Assembly: GCF_003432065.1 (NCBI RefSeq)
Contig: NZ_QWDE01000001.1
Span: forward strand, 62,001-126,000
DNA from: Mucilaginibacter terrenus
GTDB lineage: Bacteria; Bacteroidota; Bacteroidia; Sphingobacteriales; Sphingobacteriaceae
Direction of reading: 5' to 3'
Length of the DNA stretch: 64,000 bases
The notes beneath the pieces were generated by a model, which saw only the letters and a list, made by a program, of their open reading frames with translations, did no database searches and had not been told where the DNA came from. Positions 19,016 to 46,808 of the stretch are shown here, in pieces. The first letter of the stretch is position 1. Each line of letters begins with the position of its first letter. The position numbers were made by a program, and so were the translations under genes.

Positions 19016-19132
19016 AACTGTTTAACGTACAGCGTCGGCTATTGTTCCAACCTTATAAGTTGAATGCTCCTTTTCCAAAAAAGGAATAGTGTAATTGCCA
19101 AAGAAATGATGTTTACTACGCGTTGGATTGCC

Positions 19133-19162
19133 TTTGTTACTGTTGTAAAAACGCTAAATTTG
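19133..19162 (+). promoter_or_regulatory. Full Bacteroidota promoter of the kelch regulator gene
   Basis: TTTG at 19133-19136, an 18-base spacer and TAAATTTG at 19155-19162 fit the -33 TTTG and -7 TAnnTTTG consensus at normal spacing. Transcription would start near 19166, so translation must begin after that. This rules out the upstream part of the long frame and fixes the ATG at 19204. Confidence 0.7.
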
Positions 19163-19203
19163 TCTTCTTGTTTAAGTCAATACGCCGTCCTCTTGGTATT
19201 CTG

Positions 19204-21759
19204 ATGAAAGTAACTGGTAGATTTATATCGCCGTTTACGCCGGTACATAATGCTATTTGTACTCTGTTGCTGTTGGTGGTTAGTGTGTGGAATTGCAAAG
19301 CGCAGAGCCTGCAGTTTAATTCTAACGACAGCTTAATGAGCAAGCGCACCTCTTACGTAGTGTTTGCCAACAAGCCACCCACCTTTAAAGACCGCTTCAT
19401 TATCAGTTTTGATTTGTCGTTATGGGATAACGACCACCTGGGCTACGTTTTTAACATTACCGACACGCATAATAACTCGTATAGCCTGACCTATATCTAC
19501 AATCATAATGGCTCGCCAACACTTAATTTTAACATTGATAGTAAGAGCAATAAGATAGAGATACCCCTGCAGCTTTCTCAATTGAAGAAACGGCACTGGA
19601 TACCTGTAAAGGTGGACATAAACTTAACGGCCAATACTGTTGCCTTTTTAGTTAATGGCAAATGGTATAAAGCAAAAGAGTTTGGTTTTGAACAGGAGAT
19701 AACACCCACGATCACGTTTGGCCGCAATCCGCATTACTCTGATGTGCCTAAAATGGCGCTGAAGGACCTTGAAATTGGCAATGAAGATGAGAAATACTTT
19801 TTTCCATTAAACGAATGGAAAGGCAGCGCCGTGCACGACAAGGAAGGTGACGCTATCGGCTATGTAGATCACCCTTCGTGGCTCATCAACGAATCTTATT
19901 TCTGGACACCTAAATTTCAGCGCACGTTTAATGATGTTGCAGGGCTGAATTTTGATGCGGAGAAGCAAAACCTGTTTGTGTTCGAGAAAGATCGACTACT
20001 GCAATATAATGTGCAAGATGGTGTCGTTTCAGAAAAGTCTTACAAGAACACTTTACCAATAAAGCTGGTACTGGGCAAAAGTGTTGTAAATACAAATCAG
20101 CATAAGGTATATGCCTATGAGGCTTTGCCGGCAGATAGTAATCAAAGCATTGCCGCTCTTGACCTGAGCACACTTACCTGGCAGCTTTTAGGTAAAGGCT
20201 CCATCCGCGACCAAAGACATCATCATAATTCTTTTTTCGACCGGGATCAGAAAGAACTTTATCTTTTTGGGGGATATGGTTCATTCCAGTACCACAAAGA
20301 CCTTTTTAAGTACGACCAGGCGCTAGACAAATGGCAAAAACTTGAATTTAAAGGTGATACTATAACACCTCGTTTTTTCTCGGGCAGCAGCCAGGCTGAT
20401 AACAACAATGAGGTTTATGTGTTTGGCGGCTATGGCAACCAGTCGGGTAATCAAATAGTTGGTGGTACGCACTATTACGATTTATACAGGCTCAATTTAA
20501 CTACCCATACAATTAAAAAGCTTTGGCAGATAACACCTGCAGAAGAGCCTTTTGTATCCGCTAATAACCTCATTATTTCTAAGGATAAGAAATATTTTTA
20601 CGCATTGTGTTATCCGCACGAAAAACCGAAAACCAATCTTGGGCTGTATAAATTTTCAATCAAGGATGGATCATACGAGATTGTTAGCGGAACTATCCCG
20701 GTCACTTCGGAACGTATAGAAAGTGACTTCAACCTTTTCTACGATGCCACGCAGGATATTTTTATTTGTACTGCCCAGGAGTTTACATCGCCAACGCAAT
20801 CAACCATACGTATCCTTACGCTTTCCGGTCCGCCTGTAACTACACAGGCTTACCTTGAGGCGCAAAAACCCGAAGAAGCCAGCACAGGTAAATACTGGTG
20901 GTATGCAGTAGCCGCGGCGGCTACTGCAGGTGGTGTGGCTTATTTGCTTTGGAAGAAGAAATCAAAACCTGCTGTTGCTGATGCTGAGGAACAATTGGTA
21001 TTTGATCCTTCTTCTAGAAAAAAGGCCGAAAAAAAACCAAACGCGGTGTATCTGCTAGGCGAGTTTAATGCATATAACAAAGCTGGGAAGGATATAACTT
21101 ACCTTTTCAGCCCGAAAATAAAACAGTTATTTATACTGATATTACTGAACAGCCGGGAAGGCGAAGGGGTGATTTCCAAAAAAATATCATTTACACTTTG
21201 GCCGGAGAAAGATGTTACAAAAACCAAGAACATCCGGGGCGTAACGCTCAATCACCTAAGGAACATCCTTGCCGATTTTGATGGTATTGAGCTTACCTTT
21301 ATAAATGATACCTACCGTTTCCAGATCAATGAAGGTTTTTATTGCGATTACTTTGTAATCAGTTCTGCAATCGATCAAGTGCATCAGCACGACCTTACTA
21401 CAGAGGCGTTTGTTAACGGATACTTCGACTTGTTTAGCCGTGGCAGCCTTTTGAAGGAGCTGCCCGAGACGTGGCTGGACAATATTAAACTCGAATTTGA
21501 AGAATTGTTGTTACAAGTACTGCTGCCCGAAGTAAAACGAATATATGAAGCTGGAGACCACAAGCGCGCGCTGGAGCTCTCTCGCATTGCCTTGACGATA
21601 GATCCGTTTAATGACGTTGCATTAAAATATAAACTCAAGTCTCTTCGCCGGATTAAAGGTGTTGACACTGCTCGCAGGGTTTACGACGAATTTGCAGCAG
21701 AGTATCAAAAATCGCTCGATAGTGAATATCATGTTCCTTTCGAGAAGATCTGCCGGTAG
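19204..21759 (+). CDS. Membrane-spanning kelch-sensor / winged-helix regulator of the adjacent locus
   Basis: This 851-residue protein starts with a membrane-targeting segment (NAICTLLLLVVSVWNCKAQ). The periplasmic part has a concanavalin/LamG-like beta sandwich (about 35-225) and kelch repeats (about 260-530; two FGGYG words in ELYLFGGYG and EVYVFGGYG). One transmembrane helix at about 563-583 (WYAVAAAATAGGVAYLLW) is followed by basic residues, and the cytoplasmic part carries a winged-helix DNA-binding domain (about 612-715: SKKISFTLWPEKDVTKTKN, GVTLNHLRNIL) and a helical TPR/BTAD-like tail. I infer a one-component regulator that senses a glycan outside and acts on DNA inside. It lies 187 bases before the SusC gene, with repeated GGTTAA words between. 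Confidence 0.85.
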   Translation: MKVTGRFISPFTPVHNAICTLLLLVVSVWNCKAQSLQFNSNDSLMSKRTSYVVFANKPPTFKDRFIISFDLSLWDNDHLGYVFNITDTHNNSYSLTYIYNHNGSPTLNFNIDSKSNKIEIPLQLSQLKKRHWIPVKVDINLTANTVAFLVNGKWYKAKEFGFEQEITPTITFGRNPHYSDVPKMALKDLEIGNEDEKYFFPLNEWKGSAVHDKEGDAIGYVDHPSWLINESYFWTPKFQRTFNDVAGLNFDAEKQNLFVFEKDRLLQYNVQDGVVSEKSYKNTLPIKLVLGKSVVNTNQHKVYAYEALPADSNQSIAALDLSTLTWQLLGKGSIRDQRHHHNSFFDRDQKELYLFGGYGSFQYHKDLFKYDQALDKWQKLEFKGDTITPRFFSGSSQADNNNEVYVFGGYGNQSGNQIVGGTHYYDLYRLNLTTHTIKKLWQITPAEEPFVSANNLIISKDKKYFYALCYPHEKPKTNLGLYKFSIKDGSYEIVSGTIPVTSERIESDFNLFYDATQDIFICTAQEFTSPTQSTIRILTLSGPPVTTQAYLEAQKPEEASTGKYWWYAVAAAATAGGVAYLLWKKKSKPAVADAEEQLVFDPSSRKKAEKKPNAVYLLGEFNAYNKAGKDITYLFSPKIKQLFILILLNSREGEGVISKKISFTLWPEKDVTKTKNIRGVTLNHLRNILADFDGIELTFINDTYRFQINEGFYCDYFVISSAIDQVHQHDLTTEAFVNGYFDLFSRGSLLKELPETWLDNIKLEFEELLLQVLLPEVKRIYEAGDHKRALELSRIALTIDPFNDVALKYKLKSLRRIKGVDTARRVYDEFAAEYQKSLDSEYHVPFEKICR

Positions 21760-21946: not shown

Positions 21947-24900
21947 ATGGATGAAAATTTTACCAATTATGGTGTACACCCCCGTGGTATACGCTATGGT
22001 GTGAAGATGGGGAGGGCGGTGCAATGTTGCATTATATCCGTCTTGCTGGTACTTCTATGGAGTACATCCTTTGCACAAACAAACACTATCACCGGGAAAG
22101 TGTCTGACAATGCCGGTCCGCTGCCCGGCGTTACCGTTAAAGTTAAAGGGACAAACACCGCTACTGTAACAGATGTAAATGGCAAGTACACCATTGCAGT
22201 AAGTTCCGGTCAAACATTGCAATTTTCCTTTTTAGGGTACGCAGCGCAGGAAGTCCCTATTACTAACCAGCCTTCAGTTAACATCACACTAACGCAAGCA
22301 TCCTCTACACTCAATGAGGTTGTAGTAGTAGGTTACGGTACACAAAAGAAAGTTACGGTAACAGGTTCTGTTGCCACCGTAAACAGTAGCGAGATAGTAA
22401 CCACCAAGAACGAGAACGTGCTGAACTCGCTAACCGGTAAGGTAGCCGGTTTACGCGTTACGCAAAACTCAGCTGAACCGGGCTCCTTCGACAACTCCTT
22501 CAGTATTCGTGGGTTTGGCGATCCGCTGGTGATCATAGACGGGGTACCACGGGATAACATCACCAGGCTTGACCCAAATGATATCGAAAGCGTGTCAGTA
22601 CTGAAAGACGCTGCGGCTGCTATTTACGGCGTGCGCGCGGCAAACGGTGTAGTCTTGGTTACTACCAAAAAAGGTAAAAAAGGATCAATGGAACTTAACT
22701 ACTCCGGTACGTATGGTTTCCAGGTACCATCAGGCTTGCCGAAGCCGGTTGAAGCAATTGATTACATGACACTGGTGAATGAGCAGCTATTGCATAATGT
22801 GAACGGTGGCCAGGTAAAATATTCTCAAGCCGATTTTGACGCTTACACCAGCGGCCAGCGTGTAACTACCGACTGGTATACGCCTGTAATTAAGAATAAA
22901 GTACCCCAGTCACAGCACAATTTAAATGCTATTGGCGGAAGCGAAAATACCAACTACTTCATCAGTGCGGGTATAACCAATCAGGATGGTTTTCTTCGCA
23001 GCGGCGACCTTAACTATAAGCGTTACAACCTACGGTCGAACCTTTCTGCTAAAGTAAATAAAAACCTTACGGTAGATGTGAACCTGAATGGTACTATGGA
23101 TCAAAAGAACCAGCCTTACCAGGATGCGTGGTGGATAATTCGTTCGTTCTGGAGACAAGTACCTACACAATCTATTTACGCAAACAACAATCCAGATTAT
23201 CTTAATGTTGGCCAGGTTGACGGCTCTAACCCGGTGGCACTTGCTGATGCCGATGTTGATGGATACCGGGTTTATAACAACAAGTGGTTCCAATCGCAGC
23301 TTTCGGCTACGTACGTGGTGCCCTTCGTACCAGGGCTTAGCGCTAAGGGGTTGTTTAGTTATGACTATTACAGCTCCAGCAACCGCATCTACCAAAAATC
23401 TTACAACCAGTATAACTACGATGCAAATAGCGACAGCTATCAGGCTGTGCCAAACCAAACACCTGCTACTTTCCGCAGAGAGTTTTTCGAGCGTCCGGGC
23501 ACGCTAATGCAATTGTCGCTTAATTACGACCGTAGCTTTGGTGATCATAGTTTTACGGGCTTATTATTATATGAAGAGAATAACCGCCAGCAAGATAATT
23601 TCTATGCACAGCGTGAACTCTCTTTAGCTGTAGATCAACTATTTTCAGGAAGTGCCCAAAACCAGCTAGGTTCTGCAAACTCCGGCGATATATATAACTA
23701 CACCAATAAGTCTGTTGTAGGTCGTATCAACTACAATTACAAAAGTAAGTACCTGGCAGAATTTAGTTTTCGTAACGATGGCTCCTCAAGGTTCTCGCCT
23801 TTGAAACGCTGGGGATTTTTCCCGGCCGGTTCATTAGGCTGGAGAATATCTCAGGAAGGATTCTGGAAAAATTCAACAGCGCTATCATTCATCAACGATC
23901 TGAAATTAAGGGCATCTTATGGTAAAGTAGGGGATGACTCCGCACTGGCTTACCAGTTCCTTACAGGTTACCGCTACCCTGCAAATGGGTCTAACAACCA
24001 GCTGCCTCCGGGTTCAGTGTTCGACGGTACGTTTGTTAATGGTACTGAGAATCTGGGTATAGCTAACCCTAACCTTACCTGGTTCAACGCCGAAACTTAC
24101 AATATCGGTATGGACTTGGAAGCATGGAACGGCCTATTAGGTGCTACCGTCAACGTTTTTCGTCGTGACCGCACCGGTTTGCTTGCAACACAAATATTGA
24201 ATTTGCCAGGCGTTGTTGGTGCAGACCTTCCGCAGGAGAACTTAAATAGCGATCGCACTCAGGGGTTCGAATTAGAGCTTAGCCATCGCAATCATCTCGG
24301 TGCGTTTAGCTATTTCTTAAGAGGTAACGTATCATGGGCACGAACCCAAAACCGTACGGTTGTGCAGTCTCGCTTTGGCAACTCTCAACTAAACTGGCAT
24401 AACAATCAAAACAATCGCTGGAATAACATTTATTGGGGCTACGGCGAAGGTGGAAGGTACACCAGCTATCAGGATATCCTGAACAGCGGACAGTTTGTAT
24501 CTCGTAATGCAGTAGTGGGTGATTATATCTACGAGGATTGGAACGGCGACGGGCAGATCAACAACGACGACGTGCACCCGATAGCTTACAACAGCGCGCC
24601 ATTAACCAACTTTGGTTTAACACTTGGTGGCGCTTACAAAGGGTTCGACTTCAATACCGTGTGGCAGGGTGCAAGCGGTGTAAGTGTTTCTTATCAGGAA
24701 CAGTTGAACATACCTCTTTGGGGTGGTGGCAGCGCGTTGGGTATGTTCCTGGACAGATATCATCCGGCAGATGCAAATGCTGATCCTTACAATCCTAATA
24801 CAGTTTGGATACCTGGTAACTACGCGCTTACTGGTACCACTGCAGATGTAAACTCCATGTTTAACATTCAGGATGCCAAATACATCAGGCTAAAATCTGC

Positions 24901-25096
24901 CGAACTGGGTTACAGCATCAGTTCAGGTTTTGCGAAAAAGATAGGCATTAAAGGTGCCAGGATATTTGTGAATGGCTACAACCTGCTAACCTTCACCGGG
25001 GTTAAGTACCTGGACCCGGAACATCCTTCCAGCACTTATGGGTACCTCTACCCACTTAACAAAACTTACTCACTTGGCGTAAATGTTAAGCTATAA
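21947..25096 (+). CDS. SusC/RagA-type TonB-dependent outer-membrane transporter (mannan-type locus)
   Basis: This 1049-residue protein has a signal peptide ending near TSFAQ, a carboxypeptidase-like N-terminal domain (ITGKVSDNAGPLPGVTVKVKGTN), a TonB box region and plug (EVVVVGYGTQKKVTVTGS, SIRGFGDPLVIIDGVPRD, SVLKDAAAAIYGVRAANGVVLVTTKKG), and a 22-strand barrel to the end. It imports oligosaccharides delivered by its SusD partner, powered by TonB. It is first gene of an operon with SusD (11 bases), DUF3823, an unclassified enzyme, GH92 and GH76, so the substrate is probably mannose-containing. I see no STN domain, so it is controlled by the kelch regulator rather than by a sigma/anti-sigma pair. 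Confidence 0.95.
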   Translation: MDENFTNYGVHPRGIRYGVKMGRAVQCCIISVLLVLLWSTSFAQTNTITGKVSDNAGPLPGVTVKVKGTNTATVTDVNGKYTIAVSSGQTLQFSFLGYAAQEVPITNQPSVNITLTQASSTLNEVVVVGYGTQKKVTVTGSVATVNSSEIVTTKNENVLNSLTGKVAGLRVTQNSAEPGSFDNSFSIRGFGDPLVIIDGVPRDNITRLDPNDIESVSVLKDAAAAIYGVRAANGVVLVTTKKGKKGSMELNYSGTYGFQVPSGLPKPVEAIDYMTLVNEQLLHNVNGGQVKYSQADFDAYTSGQRVTTDWYTPVIKNKVPQSQHNLNAIGGSENTNYFISAGITNQDGFLRSGDLNYKRYNLRSNLSAKVNKNLTVDVNLNGTMDQKNQPYQDAWWIIRSFWRQVPTQSIYANNNPDYLNVGQVDGSNPVALADADVDGYRVYNNKWFQSQLSATYVVPFVPGLSAKGLFSYDYYSSSNRIYQKSYNQYNYDANSDSYQAVPNQTPATFRREFFERPGTLMQLSLNYDRSFGDHSFTGLLLYEENNRQQDNFYAQRELSLAVDQLFSGSAQNQLGSANSGDIYNYTNKSVVGRINYNYKSKYLAEFSFRNDGSSRFSPLKRWGFFPAGSLGWRISQEGFWKNSTALSFINDLKLRASYGKVGDDSALAYQFLTGYRYPANGSNNQLPPGSVFDGTFVNGTENLGIANPNLTWFNAETYNIGMDLEAWNGLLGATVNVFRRDRTGLLATQILNLPGVVGADLPQENLNSDRTQGFELELSHRNHLGAFSYFLRGNVSWARTQNRTVVQSRFGNSQLNWHNNQNNRWNNIYWGYGEGGRYTSYQDILNSGQFVSRNAVVGDYIYEDWNGDGQINNDDVHPIAYNSAPLTNFGLTLGGAYKGFDFNTVWQGASGVSVSYQEQLNIPLWGGGSALGMFLDRYHPADANADPYNPNTVWIPGNYALTGTTADVNSMFNIQDAKYIRLKSAELGYSISSGFAKKIGIKGARIFVNGYNLLTFTGVKYLDPEHPSSTYGYLYPLNKTYSLGVNVKL

Positions 25097-25106
25097 CATC
25101 AACAAC

Positions 25107-27017
25107 ATGAAAAAGACCATATACATAATCATATGCTTTTTGGTGTGCTTTACAACAGCATGCAAAAAGCTGGATGTACCTCCTATCAATATCATACAGG
25201 ATAAAGACGTATTTACTAGCACCGGTGGCATACAGGCCTACATGGCACGTATTTACAGCCAGTTGCCGATAGAAGATTTCCGTTATTCACCGCAGCGCGG
25301 CCTAAATTTCTTCTGGATCATCAGTCCGTTCCCGGCCGTAACAGGCGAAGCATTAAGCCGCGATCAGAATGGTGCCATGCAGGAGAACGTGGGCGAATCG
25401 CCATGGAGTGATTGTTATAAGCTGATTAGGGATGCTAATTACTTTCTGGAGAATATGCCTAAGTATAAAAGCACTTACAGCGATGCTCAGGTTAACGCTT
25501 GGTTAGGCGAGGCACGTTTCATACGCGCACTTACGTACTTTGCGCTGGTAAAGCGCTATGGAGGTGTACCGCTGGTAGATAAGGTGCTGGAATATCCAAC
25601 CACCAATGTTGAGGATCTTAATATAGCTCGCGCATCAGAGGAAGCTGTTTACGATTTTATAGCAGCCGACCTTGACTACGCATACACCAACATGTCCGAG
25701 TCTAATCAGTCTGGCCGTGCCAACAAGTATGCAGCGGCAGCTTTTAAATCGCGGGCAATGCTTTACGCCGGCTCAATAGCTAAATACAACACAACAACGT
25801 TGGTTGATGCAGCGGGCAACAGGGTATGTGGTATACCTGTCAATAAAGCTGTTACCTATTTTAAAGCCGCTTACGATGCAGCTTTATTAGTGGCACCGAA
25901 GTACAGCCTGTATAAAAAAGCCTGGGCAGCTGGCGATAAGGAAGCTCAGTTTCAAAACTATGTAAACATGTTTTTTGATGAGACAAGCCCGGAGAACGTG
26001 TTTGTAAAAGAATACCACTATCCTGAGTCTGTTCACGGGTACGATGCTTACAATGTGCCTCGACAGCTGATGGGTGCGAACGGGTATTCTTCGGAAGTGA
26101 ACCCTACGCTAAATTACGTAGAGCTGTTTGACGGATTGCCCAGGAACCCCGATGGTACAATCAAAACTACAACAGCCGGCAAATATGATTTATATTCCAA
26201 TACCATGGACCTGTTTGCCAATGCCGAACCAAGGCTTCGTGCAACCGTGATACTTCCTGGTGATCAGTTCAAGGGACAGAGTATAGAAATTCGTCGCGGT
26301 ATTTACACAGGGCCATCAAACGGCGGTATCAGTCCGCTGCTTCCTCCTGGTTCTACGTCTAATTACCCAACAAGTAATATTGTGCAATCATCTAATGCCA
26401 ACCAAACTCCATATAAGTTACCTGATGGTAGCACACTTAATCCTGCTGGCTTAAGCGGCGTGTTCACCGGTGATGGTACATGTGCTATTTCAGGTTTCTC
26501 TATCCGTAAATGGCTTGTGCCAGATAAACCAACATCAGAAGTGCTGGAAAACCGTTCTGACCAAACCTGGATCGAAATGCGTTACGCTGAAGTATTGCTA
26601 AACCGTGCCGAAGCAGCCTTTGAACTAAGTAGTTTAGGCCAGAACGATAAAGATTACCAACAGGATGCCTATATGGACATCAACCAAATTCGTGAAAGGG
26701 CGGGAGCTACCTTACTCACAGGGCCCGGCCAGTTAACAACAGATATTATCCGTAAAGAAAGAAGAAAAGAACTTGGTTTTGAAAATAAGATATGGTGGGA
26801 TATGCGCAGGTGGAGAACTGCTGATAAAGAACAAAACTCGACTATATATCGTGTGTTGATGCCATTTTACTCGGCGGCTGACAAAAAGTACTTTTTTGAT
26901 GCGCGAACCGATGAGCGCAACGTTCGGTACACCTTTGATGTACGTTGGTACTACGAGGAGATACCAGGCGGTGAGATACAGAAAAGCCAGAAGTTAATAC
27001 AAAACCCAGGTTATTAA
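25107..27017 (+). CDS. RagB/SusD family glycan-binding lipoprotein
   Basis: This 636-residue outer-membrane lipoprotein has a signal MKKTIYIIICFLVCFTTAC and Lys-rich residues after the lipidated Cys (CKKLD), consistent with surface export. The SusD TPR-like N-terminal region (AWLGEARFIRALTYFALVKRYGGVPLVD) and the conserved C-terminal core (VLLNRAEAAFEL, IRERAG, IRKERRKELGFENKIWWDMRRW) are complete, ending in QNPGY as SusD proteins often do. It captures oligosaccharides as the lid of the SusC channel. The ATG at 25107 follows the SusC stop by 10 bases and gives the clean lipoprotein signal. Confidence 0.95.
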   Translation: MKKTIYIIICFLVCFTTACKKLDVPPINIIQDKDVFTSTGGIQAYMARIYSQLPIEDFRYSPQRGLNFFWIISPFPAVTGEALSRDQNGAMQENVGESPWSDCYKLIRDANYFLENMPKYKSTYSDAQVNAWLGEARFIRALTYFALVKRYGGVPLVDKVLEYPTTNVEDLNIARASEEAVYDFIAADLDYAYTNMSESNQSGRANKYAAAAFKSRAMLYAGSIAKYNTTTLVDAAGNRVCGIPVNKAVTYFKAAYDAALLVAPKYSLYKKAWAAGDKEAQFQNYVNMFFDETSPENVFVKEYHYPESVHGYDAYNVPRQLMGANGYSSEVNPTLNYVELFDGLPRNPDGTIKTTTAGKYDLYSNTMDLFANAEPRLRATVILPGDQFKGQSIEIRRGIYTGPSNGGISPLLPPGSTSNYPTSNIVQSSNANQTPYKLPDGSTLNPAGLSGVFTGDGTCAISGFSIRKWLVPDKPTSEVLENRSDQTWIEMRYAEVLLNRAEAAFELSSLGQNDKDYQQDAYMDINQIRERAGATLLTGPGQLTTDIIRKERRKELGFENKIWWDMRRWRTADKEQNSTIYRVLMPFYSAADKKYFFDARTDERNVRYTFDVRWYYEEIPGGEIQKSQKLIQNPGY

Positions 27018-27029
27018 TTGCGTAAAAAC

Positions 27030-27788
27030 ATGAAGAAGATATTATATGCGATAGCTGTATGCGCCATTACCCTTGCGGGAAGCTCATGCAAGAAACTTGA
27101 CAATTACGATTCGCCTAACGAAACACTTACAGGTAGCGTAATAGATGCTGGCACAGGCAAAACCCTACAAACCGAAAATGGTGGCGGCGGCACCCGTATC
27201 AAATTACTGGAGACCAGCTGGAGTGATAACCCAACGCCTTTCTATATTTCATCAATGCAGGATGGTACGTTTAACTATACAAAGCTATTCCCCGGTACTA
27301 ATAAGATAAGTGCCGAAGGCGCATTTGTACCGATGGTGCAAACCGATGGAAGTGGCGCTACGACGGTTGATAAAAGCCAGACCGTTGAGATAAAAGGCAC
27401 TACAACCGTTAATTTTTCTGTCGACCCATTTTTACGTATCGAGTGGGTAGGAGAGCCAGTGCTTAACAATGATGGAACGGTAACTGTAAACTTTAAAATT
27501 ACAAGAGGTACTAATGATCCTGCTTTTCAGCAGAATATAACTGATGTGCATCTGTTCTTGAATTCTAACAAATTTGTGGGTAATAACAATTATGACAATC
27601 GTTATTCGCCGCAGATAGATTTCAATGGATCATCTGCAAACGCGCAACTGGGTCAAACTATCTCCCTAACCACAAAGGGAGGACCACTACCAACCAAGCG
27701 CGACTATTTCCTGCGTATAGGTGCAAGGACCGATTACGGCTTGAAGTACTACAACTACACAGATGTGAAAACGATAAGTGTTCCTTAA
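27030..27788 (+). CDS. DUF3823 domain lipoprotein
   Basis: This 252-residue protein has a lipoprotein signal (ILYAIAVCAITLAGSSC) and a DUF3823 body: NYDSPNETLTGSVIDAGTGKTLQTENGGGGTRIKLLETSW followed by a beta sandwich with FNYTKLFPGTNKISAEGAFVP and a second Ig-like half ending in RIGARTDYGLKYYNYTD. DUF3823 proteins are known from SusC/D operons, especially with alpha-mannan or related loci, and are thought to be surface glycan-binding proteins; direct evidence here is only position and family. The start ATG at 27030 is 12 bases after the SusD stop. Confidence 0.92.
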   Translation: MKKILYAIAVCAITLAGSSCKKLDNYDSPNETLTGSVIDAGTGKTLQTENGGGGTRIKLLETSWSDNPTPFYISSMQDGTFNYTKLFPGTNKISAEGAFVPMVQTDGSGATTVDKSQTVEIKGTTTVNFSVDPFLRIEWVGEPVLNNDGTVTVNFKITRGTNDPAFQQNITDVHLFLNSNKFVGNNNYDNRYSPQIDFNGSSANAQLGQTISLTTKGGPLPTKRDYFLRIGARTDYGLKYYNYTDVKTISVP

Positions 27789-27857: not shown

Positions 27858-30035
27858 ATGAAAAAGATTCTCCTAAGCATTGGCGCAATAGCATTATCTG
27901 CTGGCGTTTATGCACAACCAAAAACTGCTGCGCTACCTCAAAAGACTGCGTTCCAAACCAGCAGCCCATGGATTCCCCAAATAGACGTACGATCGGACAT
28001 CGCTATCGTTTATGGCGTGAACGATAGGCCCGGGATGACCTTTGAGCAACGTGTACAATCCTGGCGCGACCACGGTTACCAAACACAGTTCATGACGGGT
28101 ATTGCCTGGGGCGAATACAAAGACTATTTTCTCGGTAAATGGGATGGTATCAACCACTTAGGCGTAGGCCAGGTTACCGTTAAAGGTGATACTATTTTTC
28201 ATGGAAAGGATATGCCCTATGTGGTGCCGGTGAAATCGTTTGTCGAATACATGAAAACCGCGGTAATAAAAAGGGTTATAGACGCGGGTATAACTGACAT
28301 CTTTTTAGAGGAACCCGAGTTTTGGGCGAGAGCCGGTTATAGCGCGCCGTTTAAAGAAGAGTGGCAAAAGTACTACGGATTTCCATGGAAACCCCAGCAC
28401 GAATCTGCAGAAAACACATATTTATCCAGTAAACTCAAGTACCATTTATATTACGAGGCGATTAAAGAAACATCTAATTACGCCAAGGCTTACGGCAGGA
28501 GCAAAGGCAAAAGCATAAAAGTTTACATAGCCACCCACTCACTGGTAAATTATTCATCGTGGCAAATTGTTAGTCCGGAGGCGAGCCTTGCATCGCTGCC
28601 TGGTATAGATGGCTACATAGCACAGGTTTGGACAGGCACCTCCCGCGAGCCGACTTTTTACGACGGACAAAAGAAAGAGCGCGTGTTCGAGAACGCTTTC
28701 CTGGAATATGGTTCAATGGTGTCTATGACGGCTCCTACCGGTCGTAAGATGTACTTCCTGACGGATCCTATTGAAGATTGGCCGCGCGATTGGGCCGATT
28801 ATAAAAAAAATTACCAGGCAACATTTACTGCCAAACTGCTATACCCGATGGTTGCAGATTACGAAGTAATGCCATGGCCGGAACGTATTTACACCCACCC
28901 GTATAAAGTTGCTAACAGCAACGAAAAGGTATTAATACCGCAATACTATTCCACTCAAATGCAGATAATGGTGAATGCGCTTAACAGCATGCCAAAATCA
29001 CCTACTCGTGTCAGCGGAGTAAACGGAATTGGTGTGTTGATGAGTAACACGCTGATGTTTCAGCGGTTTCCTACTCATAACGGCTACGATGATCCCCAGT
29101 TCTCTAACTTCTATGGGCAGACACTGCCGTTACTTAAGCGCGGCGTGCCGGTGCAAACCGTTCACATGGAAAACCTGCAGTATGCTGCTACTTTAAAAGG
29201 TATCAAAGTACTGGTGGTAAGCTATTCTAATATGAAGCCGGTTTCTGCCGATGTGCATGCGGCTTTGGCTAAATGGGTGAAAGCGGGTGGTGTGCTTATT
29301 TACTGCGGCCGCGACGACGATCCTTATCAAACTGTGATGGACTGGTGGGATACAAAGGGTAACAAGTTTACCGCGCCCTCTCAACACTTATTTAAGCTAA
29401 TGAACATCAATGCTGCATCAGCAAAGCAGAAGTACAGCTACGGTAAAGGTACGGTATACATCATCAGGCAAAACCCCAAAGAGTTTGTGCTGGATGCCAA
29501 CGCCGATCCGAAATTCATCGATGTAGTGAAAGCCGGGTATGAACAGGACGCTAAAGCCGGTACGCTGCTGTTCAAAAACAGTCTTTACCTCGAAAGAGGG
29601 CCTTACGACGTAGTGTCTGTAATGGATGAGAACGCCGACAGTAAGCCTTACAACATTAAAGGGCCCGTGATAGATCTGTTCGATCCACAGTTGCCGGTGT
29701 TAGCCGAAAAGGTGGTAAACCCTGGCGAGCAGTCGCTGCTGTATAACGTGAACCGGATCGTTAACAAAACAAAACCACAGGTGCTGGCCGCTGCGGCACG
29801 CGCTTACGAAGAAAAGGTACAAGGCGCCAGGTACTCTTTTGTGGTGAAAAGCCCAATACAAACCCTGAACAGTATGCGTGTACTATTGCCCGGGAAACCC
29901 AATGTTATCAAGGTGACAGACAGCAAAGGGCAGCCGGTTGCTGATGTAAAAACGTCCTGGGATGCATCGTCCAAAACCGTGTTCCTGGGCTTTGCAAATG
30001 ATCCTGAAGGAATAAAGGTTGAATTAAGTTGGTAA
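27858..30035 (+). CDS. Unclassified exported enzyme-like protein with TIM-barrel and A4-type domains
   Basis: I cannot place this 725-residue protein in a glycoside hydrolase family. A signal peptide (ILLSIGAIALSAGVYAQ) precedes a probable TIM barrel (about 40-330) with strand-like segments DIAIVYGVNDRPG and ITDIFLEEPEFWARAG, in which Glu151, Glu152 and Glu154 are candidate catalytic acids. At about 385-505 a flavodoxin-like region (IGVLMSNTLMFQRFP, LKGIKVLVVSYSN, LAKWVKAGGVLIYCGRDDD) resembles the trimerisation domain of GH42-type beta-galactosidases, and a beta domain closes the protein. It sits between DUF3823 and GH92 in one operon, so it should act on the same glycan; I infer a new or divergent glycosidase. 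Confidence 0.8.
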   Translation: MKKILLSIGAIALSAGVYAQPKTAALPQKTAFQTSSPWIPQIDVRSDIAIVYGVNDRPGMTFEQRVQSWRDHGYQTQFMTGIAWGEYKDYFLGKWDGINHLGVGQVTVKGDTIFHGKDMPYVVPVKSFVEYMKTAVIKRVIDAGITDIFLEEPEFWARAGYSAPFKEEWQKYYGFPWKPQHESAENTYLSSKLKYHLYYEAIKETSNYAKAYGRSKGKSIKVYIATHSLVNYSSWQIVSPEASLASLPGIDGYIAQVWTGTSREPTFYDGQKKERVFENAFLEYGSMVSMTAPTGRKMYFLTDPIEDWPRDWADYKKNYQATFTAKLLYPMVADYEVMPWPERIYTHPYKVANSNEKVLIPQYYSTQMQIMVNALNSMPKSPTRVSGVNGIGVLMSNTLMFQRFPTHNGYDDPQFSNFYGQTLPLLKRGVPVQTVHMENLQYAATLKGIKVLVVSYSNMKPVSADVHAALAKWVKAGGVLIYCGRDDDPYQTVMDWWDTKGNKFTAPSQHLFKLMNINAASAKQKYSYGKGTVYIIRQNPKEFVLDANADPKFIDVVKAGYEQDAKAGTLLFKNSLYLERGPYDVVSVMDENADSKPYNIKGPVIDLFDPQLPVLAEKVVNPGEQSLLYNVNRIVNKTKPQVLAAAARAYEEKVQGARYSFVVKSPIQTLNSMRVLLPGKPNVIKVTDSKGQPVADVKTSWDASSKTVFLGFANDPEGIKVELSW

Positions 30036-30137: not shown

Positions 30138-32411
30138 ATGAAAAGAACACTTTTAATTGTACTTGCTTTGCTGCCATTGTTGTCATCGGCACAAACCAAC
30201 ACCGCTAGCCTTGCCGATCTGGTAAATCCGTTGATGGGTACTGATTCCAAGCCCTCATTATCTAATGGGAATACGTACCCGGCAATTGCTTTGCCCTGGG
30301 GCATGAACACCTGGACACCACAAACAGGCAAGATGGGGAGTGGCTGGCAATACACGTACAACGCCGACAAGATTGTCGGCTTTAAGCAAACACACCAGCC
30401 TTCACCCTGGATGAATGATTATGGTCAGTTCTCCATCTTTCCGGAAGTTGGCAAGATCAAGCTGGAAGATGCTGAACGTGCCAGCTGGTTCTCGCATAAG
30501 GCAGAGGTATCCCGGCCTTATTACTACAGCGTGTACCTGGCAGACTACGACATTACCACAGAGATTACACCTACGGAGCGTGCGGCAAGTTTCCGGTTCA
30601 CGTTCCCAAAGAGTGACAGCTCACACATTGTGATCGATGCGTTTGACAAAGGTTCTTATGTCAAAATCATTCCTGGCGAAAACAAGATAGTAGGTTATAG
30701 TACACGCAACAGCGGTTCTGTCCCTGCAAATTTTAAAAATTACTTTGTCATCTACCTTGATAAACCGTTTACGGCATCGGCCTGGCATAATAAAGATGTT
30801 GACGAAGGTAAGCTGGAGTATACAGGCGATCACGCAGGGGCTGTGCTCAACTTTAAAACCACTAAGGGCGAAAAGGTTCATCTGCGCGTTGCATCATCGT
30901 TCATCAGTATAGAGCAGGCCGAACTTAACCTCAAGCGCGAGATCGGAACCGAAAGTTTCGCATCCACCCAACAAAAAGCGAAAGACACCTGGAACAAAAC
31001 GCTGAGCCGCTTGAAAGTGGACGGCGGCACTACCGACCAGATTAGAACTTTTTACTCCTGCCTGTACCGGATGCTGTTTTTCCCGAATCGGTTGTACGAG
31101 TTTGATGCTAAAAACCAAATTGTACACTACAGCCCTTACACCGGGAAGATTACACCCGGGTATATGTTTGCAGGTACTGGTTTTTGGGACACGTTCAGGG
31201 CGTTATACCCCTTCCTAAATCTGGTTTACCCATCCATGAGCAAAGAAATGCAGGAAGGCCTCATCAACGATTACAAAGAAGGCGGCTGGCTGCCCGAGTG
31301 GAGCAGTCCGGGTTATGCAGATATTATGGTTGGTAACAACTCTGCTTCTGTTGTAGCAGAGGCTTACCTGAAAGGCGGAAGGGGATATGATATTAACACC
31401 TTATATCAAGCCCTGCTACATGGTGCCAATAACACAGGTCCGGACGCTACAGGCCGCAGAGGAGTGGAGTTTTACAACTCGATCGGCTATGTGCCATACG
31501 ATGTAAAGATTAATGAGAACGCAGCACGTACGCTCGAATATGCTTATGACGACTTCGCGATCTACAAATTGGGTAAAGCACTTGGTCGGCCTGCATCTGA
31601 AACTGAAATCTATCGGAAACGAGCAACGAATTATAAAAATCTGTTCGACCCGCAAACCGGGTTGATGCGCGGCAAAAATAAGGATGGCAGTTTTGCAACA
31701 CCTTTTAATCCATTTAAATGGGGCGATGCTTTTACCGAGGGAAACAGCTGGCATTACACTTGGAGCGTTTTTCATGACGTACAAGGTATTATCAACCTGA
31801 TGGGTGGTAATCAAAAATTTGTAACTAAGCTCGATTCGGTATTTACATTGCCGCCCGTGTTCGATGATAGCTATTATCACTCAGTGATTCACGAAATACG
31901 AGAGATGCAGATTGCAGGTATGGGCCAGTACGCACATGGCAATCAACCTATACAGCACATGACGTACCTGTACAATTACGCAGGCCAGCCCTGGAAGACA
32001 CAACAGCACGTTCGTGATGTGATGGATAAGATGTATAAACCGACTCCTGACGGTTACTGCGGCGACGAAGATAACGGCCAAACCTCCGCATGGTACGTGT
32101 TCTCTGCAATGGGCTTTTATCCGGTAACTCCCGCAAGCGATCAGTATGTCATTGGTGCGCCGTTGTTTAAAAAAGTAACACTTATCCTGGAGAATGGTAA
32201 AACTATCAACATTAACGCGCCTCAAAACAGTATCGACAACCGGTATGTAAACAGCCTTAATGTTAATGGTAAACCGTACACCTATAATTGGTTAAGCCAC
32301 TCCGCATTGCTGAAAGGTGCTGTACTCAACTTTGGTATGTCGTCTCAGCCTAACAAACAACGCGGTACCAAGCCAACCAACGCACCTTACTCACTCACAA
32401 ACGATAAATAA
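30138..32411 (+). CDS. GH92 alpha-mannosidase
   Basis: This 757-residue exported enzyme (signal peptide LLIVLALLPLLSSAQ) is a calcium-dependent exo-alpha-mannosidase of family GH92. The N-terminal beta sandwich begins LADLVNPLMGTDSKPSLSNGNTYPAIALPWGMN; the helical barrel carries FTEGNSWHY with Glu534 and GDEDNGQTSAWY with Asp643 and Asp645. These fall one residue from the positions I recall for the acid (Glu533) and base pair (Asp642/Asp644) of the Bacteroides enzyme BT3990. Specificity (alpha-1,2, -1,3 or -1,4) cannot be read here. Operon position with GH76 supports alpha-mannan degradation. Confidence 0.95.
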   Translation: MKRTLLIVLALLPLLSSAQTNTASLADLVNPLMGTDSKPSLSNGNTYPAIALPWGMNTWTPQTGKMGSGWQYTYNADKIVGFKQTHQPSPWMNDYGQFSIFPEVGKIKLEDAERASWFSHKAEVSRPYYYSVYLADYDITTEITPTERAASFRFTFPKSDSSHIVIDAFDKGSYVKIIPGENKIVGYSTRNSGSVPANFKNYFVIYLDKPFTASAWHNKDVDEGKLEYTGDHAGAVLNFKTTKGEKVHLRVASSFISIEQAELNLKREIGTESFASTQQKAKDTWNKTLSRLKVDGGTTDQIRTFYSCLYRMLFFPNRLYEFDAKNQIVHYSPYTGKITPGYMFAGTGFWDTFRALYPFLNLVYPSMSKEMQEGLINDYKEGGWLPEWSSPGYADIMVGNNSASVVAEAYLKGGRGYDINTLYQALLHGANNTGPDATGRRGVEFYNSIGYVPYDVKINENAARTLEYAYDDFAIYKLGKALGRPASETEIYRKRATNYKNLFDPQTGLMRGKNKDGSFATPFNPFKWGDAFTEGNSWHYTWSVFHDVQGIINLMGGNQKFVTKLDSVFTLPPVFDDSYYHSVIHEIREMQIAGMGQYAHGNQPIQHMTYLYNYAGQPWKTQQHVRDVMDKMYKPTPDGYCGDEDNGQTSAWYVFSAMGFYPVTPASDQYVIGAPLFKKVTLILENGKTININAPQNSIDNRYVNSLNVNGKPYTYNWLSHSALLKGAVLNFGMSSQPNKQRGTKPTNAPYSLTNDK

Positions 32412-32423: not shown

Positions 32424-33557
32424 ATGAGAAAAGTACTTTATATTTTTGCAATAAGCATGTTTATTACAGCACTAGGGTGCAGTAAGGGAAACGAGGGCAC
32501 TAAACCAGCAGGGGATAAGCCAGTTAATCCACCACCTGTTATAACACCAACCAGCTTCACTGCCGCTGATGCAACCGCTGCTTATACCGCATTTAACCGT
32601 TACTTCTACGATGCATCAAAAAAGCTCTATTATGGCAGTACCAGGCGGGATGGTGTAGCAGCTATTTGGACACAGGCCATTTACTGGGACATGGCCATGA
32701 ACGTATACGAGCGTACCAAAGATCCAGCGCAACTGACCATGATCAACGACATTTACCAGGGTAATTATAACCAGTACGATGGTTATAACTGGGATAATAC
32801 CACTACCTGGTTCATCTACGACGATATGATGTGGTGGGTAATGGCGCTGGCCCGTGCCAAACAGCTTACGGGTAACGACGTATACCTGCAAAAAGCAAAA
32901 TCTGGTTTTGAACGAGTATGGAATGGCTCATACGACGCGGTTGATGGCGGCATGTTTTGGGATTTTAAGCATAGCGGCAAAAACGCTTGTATCAACTATC
33001 CAACCGTAATAGCGGCAGTGCGCTTGTACAAGCTTACCGGCGATGCAACTTATTTAACTAAAGCAAAATCTGTGTACGCATGGGCTAAAGCTAACCTAAT
33101 GGATGCCAGCGGCCGTATAGCCGACCATAAAATCGGCAACAACCCGGCAGGTTACGAAGATTATACCTATAATCAGGGTACTGCTATAGGTGCTGCGGTT
33201 ACGCTCTTTAAAGAAACTAATGACCAAAGTTATCTAAACGATGCGAAGCTTGTTGCCGATTACACCAGGAACAAAATGGGCACCAATGGCCTGTTGCCTG
33301 CTGAGGGTGACTTTAATGAGCAAGGAGTGCTGAAAACGATCTTCGCCCAATATATTATGCAGCTGATAAATGATGGTGGCCAACCGCAGTATATGGATTG
33401 GATACAAACCAACGTGAACACAGGATGGAAAAACAGGGATACCGAACGCAATTTAACTTTTCGTAACTACGCTATCCATTGCCCAACCGGAGACATACAA
33501 TCTTACGAAGCCAGTAGCATAGTAACCTTTATGCAGTTGGTACCGCCAAAACAATAA
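32424..33557 (+). CDS. GH76 endo-alpha-1,6-mannanase-like lipoprotein
   Basis: This 377-residue surface-type lipoprotein (signal VLYIFAISMFITALGC) carries a GH76 alpha/alpha barrel. The catalytic Asp pair is visible as Asp133-Asp134 in WFIYDDMMWWVMAL, with AIWTQAIYWDMAMN, CINYPTVIAAVRLY and EDYTYNQGTAIGAAV as further signatures. GH76 enzymes cut the alpha-1,6-linked mannan backbone, as in yeast mannan, outside the cell. A proline-rich linker follows the lipidated Cys. It is the last gene of the operon, 12 bases after GH92, and is followed by a probable terminator. Confidence 0.93.
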   Translation: MRKVLYIFAISMFITALGCSKGNEGTKPAGDKPVNPPPVITPTSFTAADATAAYTAFNRYFYDASKKLYYGSTRRDGVAAIWTQAIYWDMAMNVYERTKDPAQLTMINDIYQGNYNQYDGYNWDNTTTWFIYDDMMWWVMALARAKQLTGNDVYLQKAKSGFERVWNGSYDAVDGGMFWDFKHSGKNACINYPTVIAAVRLYKLTGDATYLTKAKSVYAWAKANLMDASGRIADHKIGNNPAGYEDYTYNQGTAIGAAVTLFKETNDQSYLNDAKLVADYTRNKMGTNGLLPAEGDFNEQGVLKTIFAQYIMQLINDGGQPQYMDWIQTNVNTGWKNRDTERNLTFRNYAIHCPTGDIQSYEASSIVTFMQLVPPKQ

Positions 33558-36002: not shown

Positions 36003-38462
36003 ATGAAACGTTTCCTATGTATCACTTTCGGCTTTTTGCCGTTGATAGTCGCTGCACAGCGCCCAATGAAGTTGTGGTACAAACAACCTGCTAAAGTTTG
36101 GACGGAAGCCCTGCCGCTTGGGAACGGGAGGTTAGGAGCGATGGTGTTTGGCGGGGTTGCGAACGAACACCTCCAATTAAATGAAAGCACCTTTTGGACC
36201 GGCGGGCCAATTAAGAGTAATGTGAACCCCGAATCACCAAAGTATCTGGCGCAGGTTAGAGATGCATTGTTAAACAAGCACGATTATAAGGAGGCTAGCC
36301 GGCTAACCAAAAAGATGCAAGGACTGTTTACCGAATCTTACCTGCCGTTAGCGGACATTTTTATAAAACAGCAACTAAAAGATACAAACGCAACCAAATA
36401 CTATCGTGATCTGGACATTACAACAGCTATAGCCAACACTAATTTCACAGCTGATGGGGTGAACTATCATCGTGAGGCTTTCTCCTCATCACCTGATCAG
36501 GTAATGGTACTCAGATTAACAGCAGACAAGCCGGGCAAGTTAAACTTTACAGTAAATTCCAGCAGCCTGGTGCATTTTACTTTATTAAAAGAAGGCTCTG
36601 GTGAGTTGCGGCTGAGTGGTAAAGCACCCGTTCACGCCGACCCTAGTTATTACAATCCTAAGCGGGACCATATAGTTTATCAGGACACAGCTAAGAGCGC
36701 CGGTATGCGCTACGAGTTGTTAATAAAAGCTATAAATGACGGCGGAACTGTTGAAACTAGCAACAATGGGATTGTAGTTAAGAATGCTACAAAGGTAACC
36801 TTGCTGTTGTCGGCTGCTACCAGTTTTAATGGTTTTGACCACAACCAGGATAAAGATGAACACCGCATAGCCAGAGAGTATCTTAATAAAGCAGCAGCAA
36901 AAGGTTATGAAAGTCTGAGAAAAGCACACATCTCAGATTATCAGAAATATTTTAACCGCGTATCGTTAAACATTGCCCCGGGCAAGCCAACGCCTAATGC
37001 CGTATTGCCTACGGATGAACGTATCAACGGCTACACCGCCGGCGCATATGATCCGGATTATGAGACATTATATTTTCAGTATGGGCGTTACCTGCTTATT
37101 TCCAGTTCCCGGCCGGGCGGAACAGCTGCCAACCTGCAAGGCATATGGAATAACGAGATGCGCCCTCCATGGAGCTCTAACTACACCATCAATATCAATA
37201 CGCAGATGAACTACTGGCCTGCTGAGAGCACTAACCTGTCGGAAATGCACCAGCCATTGTTCGGGCTGATAAAGGAACTGGCTATTACTGGCAAGACTAC
37301 GGCAAAGCAGTTTTACAATGCAAACGGCTGGGTGGCACACCACAATTCCGATATCTGGGCGCAATCAAATCCAGTGGGGGACGTAGGCAATGGTGATCCC
37401 AAATGGGCGAACTGGGCTATGGGTGGCAATTGGCTTTGCCAGCACCTTTGGGAGCATTACCAGTTTACCCGGGATCGCGACTTTTTACAAAAACAGGCTT
37501 ATCCTATAATGAAAGAAGCCGCATTGTTTTGTTTTGATTGGCTTGTGGAAGACAAAGATGGGTATTTGGTTACAGCACCATCTGTATCACCGGAGAACGA
37601 TTATATTGACGATGAAGGCCGCCAGGGTGAAGTGTCCGTTGCTACTACCATGGACATGTCCATCATCTATGACCTGTTTACGAACCTGATAGATGCATCA
37701 GAACAATTAGGAAATGATGCCGGGTTCAGAAAGCTGTTAATAGAGAAAAGAAACAAACTGTACCCGCTGCATATTGGCAAAGCTGGTAACCTGCAGGAAT
37801 GGTATAAAGACTTCAAAGACGTAGACCCGCACCACAGGCATGTTTCGCATCTGTTTGGGCTATACCCCGGTAAACAAATTTCGCCGATAGCCACTCCGGA
37901 GTTTGCTAAAGCTGCGCTAAAAACTTTGGAGATCCGGGGTGATGACGGCACCGGATGGAGCCTTGCCTGGAAACTAAACTTTTGGGCGAGGTTATTAAAC
38001 GGCAACCATGCTTACCAGCTTATACGCGAACTGTTGAAGTCCAATTCGGCTGCACAAACAGATATTCATCATGGAGGAGGCGTTTATCCGAACATGTTCG
38101 ACTCTCACCCGCCGTTTCAGATAGATGGCAACTTTGGCGGTACAGCGGGTATGACCGAAATGTTGCTGCAAAGCCAGTTAGGCGATATTTACATGCTGCC
38201 AGCGCTGCCTGATGCCTGGGAAACCGGAACCGTTAGAGGTTTAAAAGCCCGTGGAAACTTCCAGGTAGATATGATTTGGGTCAGGAAGAAGTTACAATCA
38301 GCAACTATTTTATCCTTGAAAGGAGGCATCTGCAAGGTGCGTACCTCCGGAAAGATTAATGTAAAGGGGGTTGCTACTAAAGTGGAAAAGACAGATTTTG
38401 ACTATGTGACTTCATTTGAAACCAGGCCGGGTGTGAAGTATTCTATTACAGCAGTTAACTAG
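36003..38462 (+). CDS. GH95 alpha-L-fucosidase-family enzyme
   Basis: This 819-residue enzyme has a signal peptide (FLCITFGFLPLIVAAQ) and the GH95 order: N-terminal beta domain (MKLWYKQPAKVWTEALPLGNGRLGAMVFGGV, NESTFWTGGP), alpha/alpha barrel with NTQMNYWPAES, SDIWAQSNPVGD and TAPSVSPENDY, and the late HPPFQIDGNFGGTAGM. GH95 enzymes remove terminal alpha-1,2-linked L-fucose (some act on L-galactose) by inversion, with water activated by Asn/Asp residues in these segments. It is followed by a sugar kinase and a GH109 enzyme on the same strand. Its stop overlaps the convergent RRM gene by 4 bases. Confidence 0.93.
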   Translation: MKRFLCITFGFLPLIVAAQRPMKLWYKQPAKVWTEALPLGNGRLGAMVFGGVANEHLQLNESTFWTGGPIKSNVNPESPKYLAQVRDALLNKHDYKEASRLTKKMQGLFTESYLPLADIFIKQQLKDTNATKYYRDLDITTAIANTNFTADGVNYHREAFSSSPDQVMVLRLTADKPGKLNFTVNSSSLVHFTLLKEGSGELRLSGKAPVHADPSYYNPKRDHIVYQDTAKSAGMRYELLIKAINDGGTVETSNNGIVVKNATKVTLLLSAATSFNGFDHNQDKDEHRIAREYLNKAAAKGYESLRKAHISDYQKYFNRVSLNIAPGKPTPNAVLPTDERINGYTAGAYDPDYETLYFQYGRYLLISSSRPGGTAANLQGIWNNEMRPPWSSNYTININTQMNYWPAESTNLSEMHQPLFGLIKELAITGKTTAKQFYNANGWVAHHNSDIWAQSNPVGDVGNGDPKWANWAMGGNWLCQHLWEHYQFTRDRDFLQKQAYPIMKEAALFCFDWLVEDKDGYLVTAPSVSPENDYIDDEGRQGEVSVATTMDMSIIYDLFTNLIDASEQLGNDAGFRKLLIEKRNKLYPLHIGKAGNLQEWYKDFKDVDPHHRHVSHLFGLYPGKQISPIATPEFAKAALKTLEIRGDDGTGWSLAWKLNFWARLLNGNHAYQLIRELLKSNSAAQTDIHHGGGVYPNMFDSHPPFQIDGNFGGTAGMTEMLLQSQLGDIYMLPALPDAWETGTVRGLKARGNFQVDMIWVRKKLQSATILSLKGGICKVRTSGKINVKGVATKVEKTDFDYVTSFETRPGVKYSITAVN

Positions 38463-38809
38463 TTAATAGTCCTTCTTGGGCGCCTTTGGCGGTCATCGCT
38501 GCCGGTAGGGCGCGGAGGACGATTAGGTGCCGGACGGAAATTACCAGGCTTAGGGCGTGTTACAGCAGGTTCTTCTGTTATCTTTACAGATAGCACTTTA
38601 CCTGCGAATGAAGTACCATCCAGCGCTTCCATGGCAGCTTCTGCACCGGCACGATCTACCATCTCAATAAAGGCGTAACCTTTACATACCCTTGTTTTTT
38701 TATCACGAACGATCTTGAGGGTACTTATATCGCCATATACCGCCACTATCTTAGCCAGTTCAAGTTCTTCAATATCCAGCGGAAACCCGCCGACAAATAA
38801 TTTTACCAT
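38459..38809 (-). CDS. RRM-type RNA-binding protein
   Basis: This 116-residue protein carries one RNA recognition motif: RNP2 as KLFVGGFPL at the N-terminus, RNP1 as CKGYAFIEM near residue 45, and a final beta strand (LSVKITEE). The C-terminal 35 residues are basic, rich in Pro and Arg (PNRPPRPTGSDDRQRRPRR), a typical disordered tail. Such small RRM proteins are abundant in Bacteroidota and bind single-stranded RNA broadly. It is embedded between the GH95 and kinase genes on the other strand and is probably unrelated to glycan use. Confidence 0.92.
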   Translation of the reverse strand: MVKLFVGGFPLDIEELELAKIVAVYGDISTLKIVRDKKTRVCKGYAFIEMVDRAGAEAAMEALDGTSFAGKVLSVKITEEPAVTRPKPGNFRPAPNRPPRPTGSDDRQRRPRRTIN

Positions 38810-39203
38810 AAGTAATCACTTTAACGGTAAAAGTACCTAAACCGTTTCCACTAATATAACTTTTTTAACTTGGCGCCACAAGGTCTCAAAAATCTGCAGC
38901 CGTTAGCTGCTCTAAGAGTGTTCATCTGTTCAACTAATTTTGCATTGCCAAATATTGAACAGTTCCGTAACAGGCTATTTACCAGCAATAACCACACTTT
39001 TTCACATCAATAAAAACAGCTATTTTCACCAATATTTGTATTTATCCAAATATTTCTGTATATTGATGCATCTGCTCTTCAAACTTGTTCTACCTGCAAC
39101 ACTCACCAATTACCTGCAAATTATTATCTTGCCATAGCATAGCAGCAGCAAACTGCCTGTAGCTTAGGTGCGCTTACACGCGCAGATCAATTATAAATTA
39201 TAG
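38810..39203. other. Intergenic region between the RRM and kinase genes
   Basis: This 394-base gap separates two divergent genes. It is AT-rich in its middle and contains a perfect 8-bp inverted repeat at 39031-39054. I see no ORF with a recognisable product, no terminator and no exact TAnnTTTG box; TACTTTTA on the reverse strand near 38840 is a near miss for the RRM gene. Confidence 0.5.
39031..39054. promoter_or_regulatory. Inverted repeat upstream of the kinase gene
   Basis: AATATTTG (39031-39038) and CAAATATT (39047-39054) form a perfect 8-bp inverted repeat with an 8-base spacer, 150 bases before the kinase start. The layout fits a dimeric regulator site. Confidence 0.35.
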
Positions 39204-40313: not shown

Positions 40314-40359
40314 TTATCTACAAACTCATAATATTTATATATTAAAAACAACACACACT

Positions 40360-41709: not shown

Positions 41710-41883
41710 TAAGAAGGCATCAATTATGATTGTTCTTCTGAGTTACCGCTTTGGCTGAGTTCTCAATCTGTCATTCTCGCTGCTCGCTCAACAACTTACC
41801 CGGTGTTTGAATTGCCGGACAGGAACCACCAACACATGAATTGAAAAATTTTTGTAGTAACGGCAAACCAATTCATATTGACG

Positions 41884-46797: not shown

Positions 46798-46808
46798 CAT
46801 TTAACAAC

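What the first reader, a model, noticed from the sequence alone, without database searches (positions are those of the whole stretch)
27858..30035. Unclassified enzyme in a GH92/GH76 operon may be a new glycoside hydrolase
The 725-residue exported protein has a barrel-like region with Glu-rich FLEEPEFW and a region resembling the trimerisation domain of GH42 enzymes, but I cannot match it to a known CAZy family. It lies between DUF3823 and GH92 in an operon whose other members point to alpha-mannan.
Basis: partly seen in the sequence, partly recalled or inferred. Interest (0 to 1): 0.62.

Follow-up and report, generated by a model that had tools for sequence, protein, structure and literature searches.

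The report
Unclassified enzyme in mannan-degradation operons
This gene makes an exported, probably sugar-cutting enzyme of a family that no database consulted here describes; its predicted shape resembles known beta-galactosidases and beta-mannosidases, and in many Bacteroidota it sits beside a mannose-releasing enzyme, so it is a good lead for a new glycosidase family, but its activity is untested.

Summary
The 725-aa exported ORF (X) at 27858-30035 lies in a tight SusC-SusD-DUF3823-X-GH92-GH76 operon. X has no Pfam, NCBIfam, PHROG or PDB-sequence match, alone or (for Pfam and PDB) as a 39-member family. A genome scan found 173 stretches encoding relatives. Of 61 loci with full flanks, 48 have DUF3823 immediately upstream and 37 have GH92 within 3 kb downstream. 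Even the 58%-identical relative L084, with different SusCD genes, keeps GH92. A 39% homologue in Paenibacillus follows sugar ABC-transporter genes. The AlphaFold model (pLDDT 85) is a TIM barrel, a GH42-type middle domain and a C-terminal beta domain; the best solved matches are IaSGT (GH35) and GH42. Profile comparison supports only the middle domain (39.4 against at most 23.8 in 60 shuffles), not the barrel. Most likely X is a new glycoside-hydrolase family on a GH42-like scaffold, acting on ends of mannose-containing oligosaccharides together with GH92. Beta-mannosidase is a low-confidence first guess; activity, anomericity and substrate are unknown.

The parts
27858..30035 (+). X: 725-aa exported protein of an undescribed family, candidate glycoside hydrolase
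27942..28997 (+). X catalytic-type TIM barrel, aa 29-380 (most conserved part)
   Evidence: AlphaFold2 models; conservation
28308..28319 (+). X Glu151-Glu152-Pro-Glu154 at the end of strand 4; Glu152 is the proposed acid(/base)
   Evidence: invariant in 85 rows and in Paenibacillus; strand; role inferred
28764..28766 (+). X Asp303 at the end of strand 7, proposed nucleophile or base
   Evidence: invariant; strand; role inferred
29010..29492 (+). X middle domain, aa 385-545, GH42 trimerisation-domain-like
   Evidence: hhalign against GH42 above 60 shuffles; fold search
29580..30032 (+). X C-terminal all-beta region, aa 575-725
   Evidence: DSSP of the model
21947..25096 (+). SusC-like TonB-dependent transporter
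   Evidence: TIGR04056
25083..27017 (+). SusD-like surface glycan-binding protein
   Evidence: PF07980
27018..27788 (+). DUF3823 protein, conserved immediately upstream of X (annotated TTG start uncertain)
30138..32411 (+). GH92, close to the solved alpha-1,2-mannosidase 2wvx
32424..33557 (+). GH76, endo-alpha-1,6-mannanase type
19123..21759 (+). Probable membrane-bound regulator (kelch repeats, hydrophobic segment, weak BTAD-like C-terminus), near X in many loci

Best explanation
X is an exported (periplasmic or lipid-anchored) carbohydrate-active enzyme of a sequence family not described in the libraries consulted, on the GH42/GH164-type scaffold: a catalytic TIM barrel, a trimerisation-type middle domain and a C-terminal beta domain. 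It most likely hydrolyses glycosidic bonds at chain ends or in short oligosaccharides that contain mannose and are brought in by its SusC/SusD/DUF3823 partners, clearing linkages that the neighbouring GH92 alpha-1,2-mannosidase cannot cut. Glu152 at the end of strand 4 would be the acid(/base) and Asp303 at the end of strand 7 the nucleophile (if retaining) or base (if inverting). First guess for the bond, at about 30%: beta-mannosyl, either a beta-1,2-mannose cap on mannan side chains or the core Man-beta-GlcNAc of N-glycans. Shown: sequence, conservation, operon, middle-domain relationship to GH42. Predicted: three-domain fold and barrel. Inferred: catalysis, residues, substrate.
For: Fold search of the whole model led by IaSGT and GH42; middle domain GH42-like by profile; invariant carboxylates and aromatics at strand ends; SusCD-DUF3823-X-GH92 order conserved; X with GH92 kept in L084 although SusCD and the third surface gene differ; Paenibacillus homologue right after an ABC sugar transporter; GH42-type scaffolds house beta-mannosidases GH164 Bs164 (PMC7105311) and Op5Man5 (PMC8233224); beta-1,2-mannose caps are removed in Bacteroides mannan loci to let alpha-mannosidases proceed (PMC4599007).
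Against: No activity data. The barrel alone matches many barrels only weakly, and its strand-4 and strand-7 segments show no profile similarity to GH42 above shuffles. The strand-7 residue is Asp, not the Glu of clan GH-A. One clade pairs X with GH144 instead of GH92, and isolated loci have GH95, GH127 or sulfatases.
Confidence: 0.5

Rival explanations
1. X is an exo-beta-glycosidase of other specificity (glucosidase, galactosidase or galactofuranosidase) that removes non-mannose decorations from mannans or glycoproteins.
For: Nearest solved folds are GH42 beta-galactosidases and a beta-1,2-glucosyltransferase; four loci pair X with a GH144-type beta-1,2-glucanase gene.
Against: The dominant partner across the tree is GH92; the GH144 pairing is a single clade.
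Confidence: 0.25
2. X cleaves alpha-mannosidic linkages, endo or exo, with GH92 (as GH99/GH195-type enzymes do).
For: Operons rich in alpha-mannan enzymes; GH195 shows that new endo-mannanases still turn up beside GH92 (PMC13063451).
Against: No sequence relation to any solved structure, GH99 included; the scaffold's characterised members mostly cut beta-linkages.
Confidence: 0.12
3. X is a transglycosylase or phosphorylase-like enzyme that rearranges oligosaccharides, as IaSGT (GH35) and GH112 do on this scaffold.
For: IaSGT is the top fold match and GH112 also appears; IaSGT is a transferase (PMC8861115).
Against: X is exported, whereas IaSGT has no signal peptide (PMC8861115) and an exported phosphorylase would lose its sugar phosphate.
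Confidence: 0.08
4. X is a non-catalytic glycan-binding protein on a dead barrel.
For: No activity is known, and the GH-A Asn-Glu and Glu pattern is not kept as such.
Against: Several carboxylates and aromatics at the barrel's strand ends are invariant from Bacteroidota to Paenibacillus, and the barrel is the most conserved part.
Confidence: 0.05

Closest known systems
GH42 beta-galactosidases (e.g. 1kwg, 4uzs, 3tts)
   Same: Barrel, trimerisation-type middle domain, C-terminal beta domain; middle domain related by profile
   Different: No PF02449 match; no barrel sequence similarity; Glu-Glu on strand 4 and Asp on strand 7
IaSGT, GH35 beta-1,2-glucosyltransferase of Ignavibacterium album (7vkz)
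   Same: Best whole-model fold match
   Different: 11% identity; cytosolic; catalytic residues Glu176 and Glu343 (PMC8861115); no sequence match to X
GH164 beta-mannosidase Bs164 and the GH5 enzyme Op5Man5
   Same: The same three- or two-domain GH42-type architecture carrying beta-mannosidase activity (PMC7105311, PMC8233224)
   Different: No sequence match to X, not among the 50 listed fold matches; their strand-7 residue is Glu
BT3780, GH130 beta-1,2-mannosidase of Bacteroides
   Same: The role suggested here: uncapping mannan side chains so that alpha-mannosidases can proceed (PMC4599007)
   Different: Unrelated family; functional analogue at most

Membership tests
GH42 | Match to the GH42 catalytic-domain model PF02449 | tested here: not met
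   No match at E up to 1, alone or member by member
GH42 | Barrel + trimerisation domain + C-terminal beta domain | tested here: met
   Model and fold search; middle domain by profile
GH42 | Clan GH-A Asn-Glu on strand 4 and Glu on strand 7 | tested here: not met
   Model strands plus conservation give Glu-Glu and Asp303; strand numbering inferred, no superposition possible
GH164 | Sequence similarity to Bs164 (solved structure) | tested here: not met
   Not among hits of a 39-row profile against all PDB sequences
GH35 (IaSGT type) | Sequence similarity to GH35 or IaSGT | tested here: not met
   No Pfam or PDB sequence match; hhalign with 14 GH35-like proteins at background
GH14 | Sequence match to GH14 models | tested here: not met
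   No Pfam match; only a weak barrel-only fold match
CAZy families without Pfam model or solved structure | Sequence match to the family | not testable with these tools
   CAZy/dbCAN not available here
Glycoside hydrolase (activity) | Hydrolysis of a glycosidic bond | not testable with these tools
   Needs purified protein
SusCD polysaccharide utilisation locus | SusC/SusD pair with carbohydrate-active enzymes in one operon | tested here: met

The most novel reading that the evidence does not exclude
X founds a new glycoside-hydrolase family on the GH42 scaffold that uses Asp at the strand-7 position and is dedicated to terminal beta-1,2-linked hexosides, which would explain its pairing with GH92 (beta-1,2-mannose-capped mannan) in most loci and with GH144 (beta-1,2-glucan) in one clade.
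Probability: 0.12. Interest if true: 0.7.

Novelty: new variant of a known kind. Interest (0 to 1): 0.45.

Why it matters
A strongly conserved enzyme gene fixed in SusCD operons of many Bacteroidota, with no family model in Pfam or NCBIfam, is a blind spot in predictions of what these bacteria eat. If active, it would add a glycoside-hydrolase family, a missing step in mannan or N-glycan breakdown, and a test of how far the catalytic residues of the GH42 scaffold can vary.

Tried and rejected
Phage and viral homologues: none. Profile search of 396 Bacteroidota genomes for remote paralogues: apart from four full members only fragments of about 15 bits, three of them in the middle domain. GH35-like proteins as hhalign partners: background scores. 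Alignment of strand-4 and strand-7 segments with GH42: not above shuffles, so the tempting match of EEPEFW...YSAPFKEEW to GH42 NEPSHYG...YSPAAQESF is not claimed as homology. The weak antibody and redoxin matches are taken as chance. GH195 (PMC13063451) was considered: it is described as distantly GH99-related, and X shows no such relation. Literature searches for this family, and for GH196 to GH201, gave nothing relevant. Sequence-relatives outside Bacteroidota could be sought only in the plasmid and phage collections after the single genome scan.

Full report
Observation. The window carries a 725-aa ORF (X) at 27858-30035 on the + strand. It starts with a signal-peptide-like stretch and contains FLEEPEFW at aa 149-156. 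It lies in a same-strand run SusC (21947-25096), SusD (25083-27017), DUF3823 (27018-27788), X, GH92 (30138-32411), GH76 (32424-33557) with gaps of -14, 0, 69, 102 and 12 bases, which is what an operon looks like. The window lies in a 4.6-Mb genome; the closest relatives of X are from Mucilaginibacter.

No known family by sequence. Pfam, NCBIfam, PADLOC, PHROGs and PDB sequences give no credible match for X. A 39-row profile gives none against PDB sequences, and scanning each member against Pfam gives nothing consistent. The literature searches returned no paper recognisable as describing this family. CAZy itself could not be searched.

Distribution. A scan of GTDB genome contigs found 173 stretches encoding relatives, of which 80 were kept. 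Nearly all are Bacteroidota (Mucilaginibacter, Pedobacter, Chitinophaga, Puia, Ohtaekwangia, Algoriphagus, Echinicola, Parabacteroides, Maribellus), with one MAG labelled Williamsia. X is patchy: 4 of 396 sampled Bacteroidota genomes, the window's own included. Identity to X goes down to 56-58% in L083 and L084. A Paenibacillus cellulositrophicus plasmid encodes a homologue at 39% identity over 96% of the length. Its reading frame shows no signal peptide to my eye and directly follows ABC-transporter permease and solute-binding-protein genes, which points to action on imported oligosaccharides (inference).

Context. Of 61 loci with at least 9 kb on both sides, 48 have DUF3823 immediately upstream and 37 have GH92 within 3 kb downstream on the same strand. 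With 6 GH92 genes in the 4.6-Mb own genome the chance expectation is roughly 0.2% (my arithmetic). The loci are related, so these are not independent events, but GH92-linked members occur in all large branches of the tree. A GH76 like the window's is in 6 of the 61, and a more divergent gene group, whose L053 member matches the GH76 model, sits in 13 operons. In L084 (58% identity) SusC, SusD and the third surface gene differ (BT_3987-like plus F5/8 type), yet X and GH92 are kept, with a second GH92 further on. Some Mucilaginibacter loci keep X and GH92 side by side without SusCD directly upstream (L008, L015, L017). The window's GH92 is close to the solved alpha-1,2-mannosidase 2wvx (1139 bits), and its GH76 keeps the DD pair aligned with the solved alpha-1,6-mannanases. 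Exceptions matter: in one clade of four Mucilaginibacter loci X follows a gene close to the GH144 endo-beta-1,2-glucanase, and isolated loci have GH95, GH127 or sulfatases. Mannose in the substrate is therefore likely, not secured.

Structure. The AlphaFold2 model from 39 sequences has mean pLDDT 84.7 and pTM 0.87. Its order is a barrel (about aa 30-380), an alpha/beta domain (about 385-545) and a C-terminal all-beta region (about 575-725). Foldseek against the PDB is led by the beta-1,2-glucosyltransferase IaSGT and GH42 beta-galactosidases (E 1e-13 to 1e-9, TM about 0.5), then GH167 and GH112-type enzymes. Modelled alone, the barrel is less certain (pLDDT 78) and matches many barrels weakly: GH14, GH10, GH168, GH42, GH156, GH20 types. 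By profile comparison, X aa 380-560 against GH42 scores 39.4 where 60 column-shuffled controls reach at most 23.8, while the segments around strands 4 and 7 do not exceed controls. A relationship with GH42 is thus supported for the middle domain, and only similarity of shape for the barrel. Bs164 of GH164 and Op5Man5 show that this architecture also houses beta-mannosidases at negligible sequence identity (PMC7105311, PMC8233224).

Active site. Strands in the model put Glu151-Glu152 at the end of strand 4 and Asp303 at the end of strand 7; strand 3 is degenerate, so the numbering is inferred. In 85 aligned rows Glu151, Glu152, Glu154, His227, Gln256, Trp258, Asp303, Asp307, Glu336 and Trp340 never vary, and Glu306 varies once; these invariant residues are also kept in Paenibacillus. 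In clan GH-A the acid/base is a Glu on strand 4 and the nucleophile a Glu on strand 7 (stated for GH164 in PMC7105311; the preceding Asn is general knowledge). If the equivalence holds, X has Glu-Glu and Asp instead. No coordinates were available for superposition, so this remains a proposal.

Mechanism and likelihood. My own estimates: about 85% that X is a carbohydrate-active enzyme, about 70% that it acts on chain ends or short oligosaccharides, about 30% that the bond is beta-mannosyl. The last guess rests on the GH92 partner, the scaffold, and the precedent of BT3780, which removes beta-1,2-mannose caps and lets an alpha-mannosidase proceed (PMC4599007). The own genome holds three GH130 genes outside this operon, so such a role would not be unique to X.

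Verdict. X is a good candidate for a new glycoside-hydrolase family, of a known general kind, with an unusual predicted catalytic set. It has not been shown to be an enzyme.

Noticed in passing
window 19123-21759: 878-aa protein with kelch repeats, a hydrophobic segment and a weak BTAD-like C-terminus; it looks like a one-component membrane regulator and stays near X in 33 of 61 fully flanked loci.
   Followed up: partly
L029, L032, L033, L042 (just upstream of X): GH144-type gene replaces SusCD/GH92 as the neighbour of X in one Mucilaginibacter clade.
   Followed up: partly
L011:12225-13241: 339-aa lipoprotein-like protein between X and GH92 in eight Mucilaginibacter-type loci; no Pfam, NCBIfam or PDB sequence match.
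   Followed up: partly
L079:14573-17074: Glutaminase-A-type six-hairpin protein (PF16335/PF17168/PF16334) downstream of X and GH92 in eight operons; its role in these loci is unclear.
   Followed up: no
window 36003-43510: GH95 (36003-38462), a phosphotransferase-like gene (39204), a GH109-type oxidoreductase (40360) and a DUF6377 protein (41918) follow; a second SusC/SusD pair lies at 43810-48539.
   Followed up: no
L085:11974-14172: A lone Bacillota homologue of X on a 0.9-Mb Paenibacillus plasmid, next to sugar ABC-transporter genes.
   Followed up: partly
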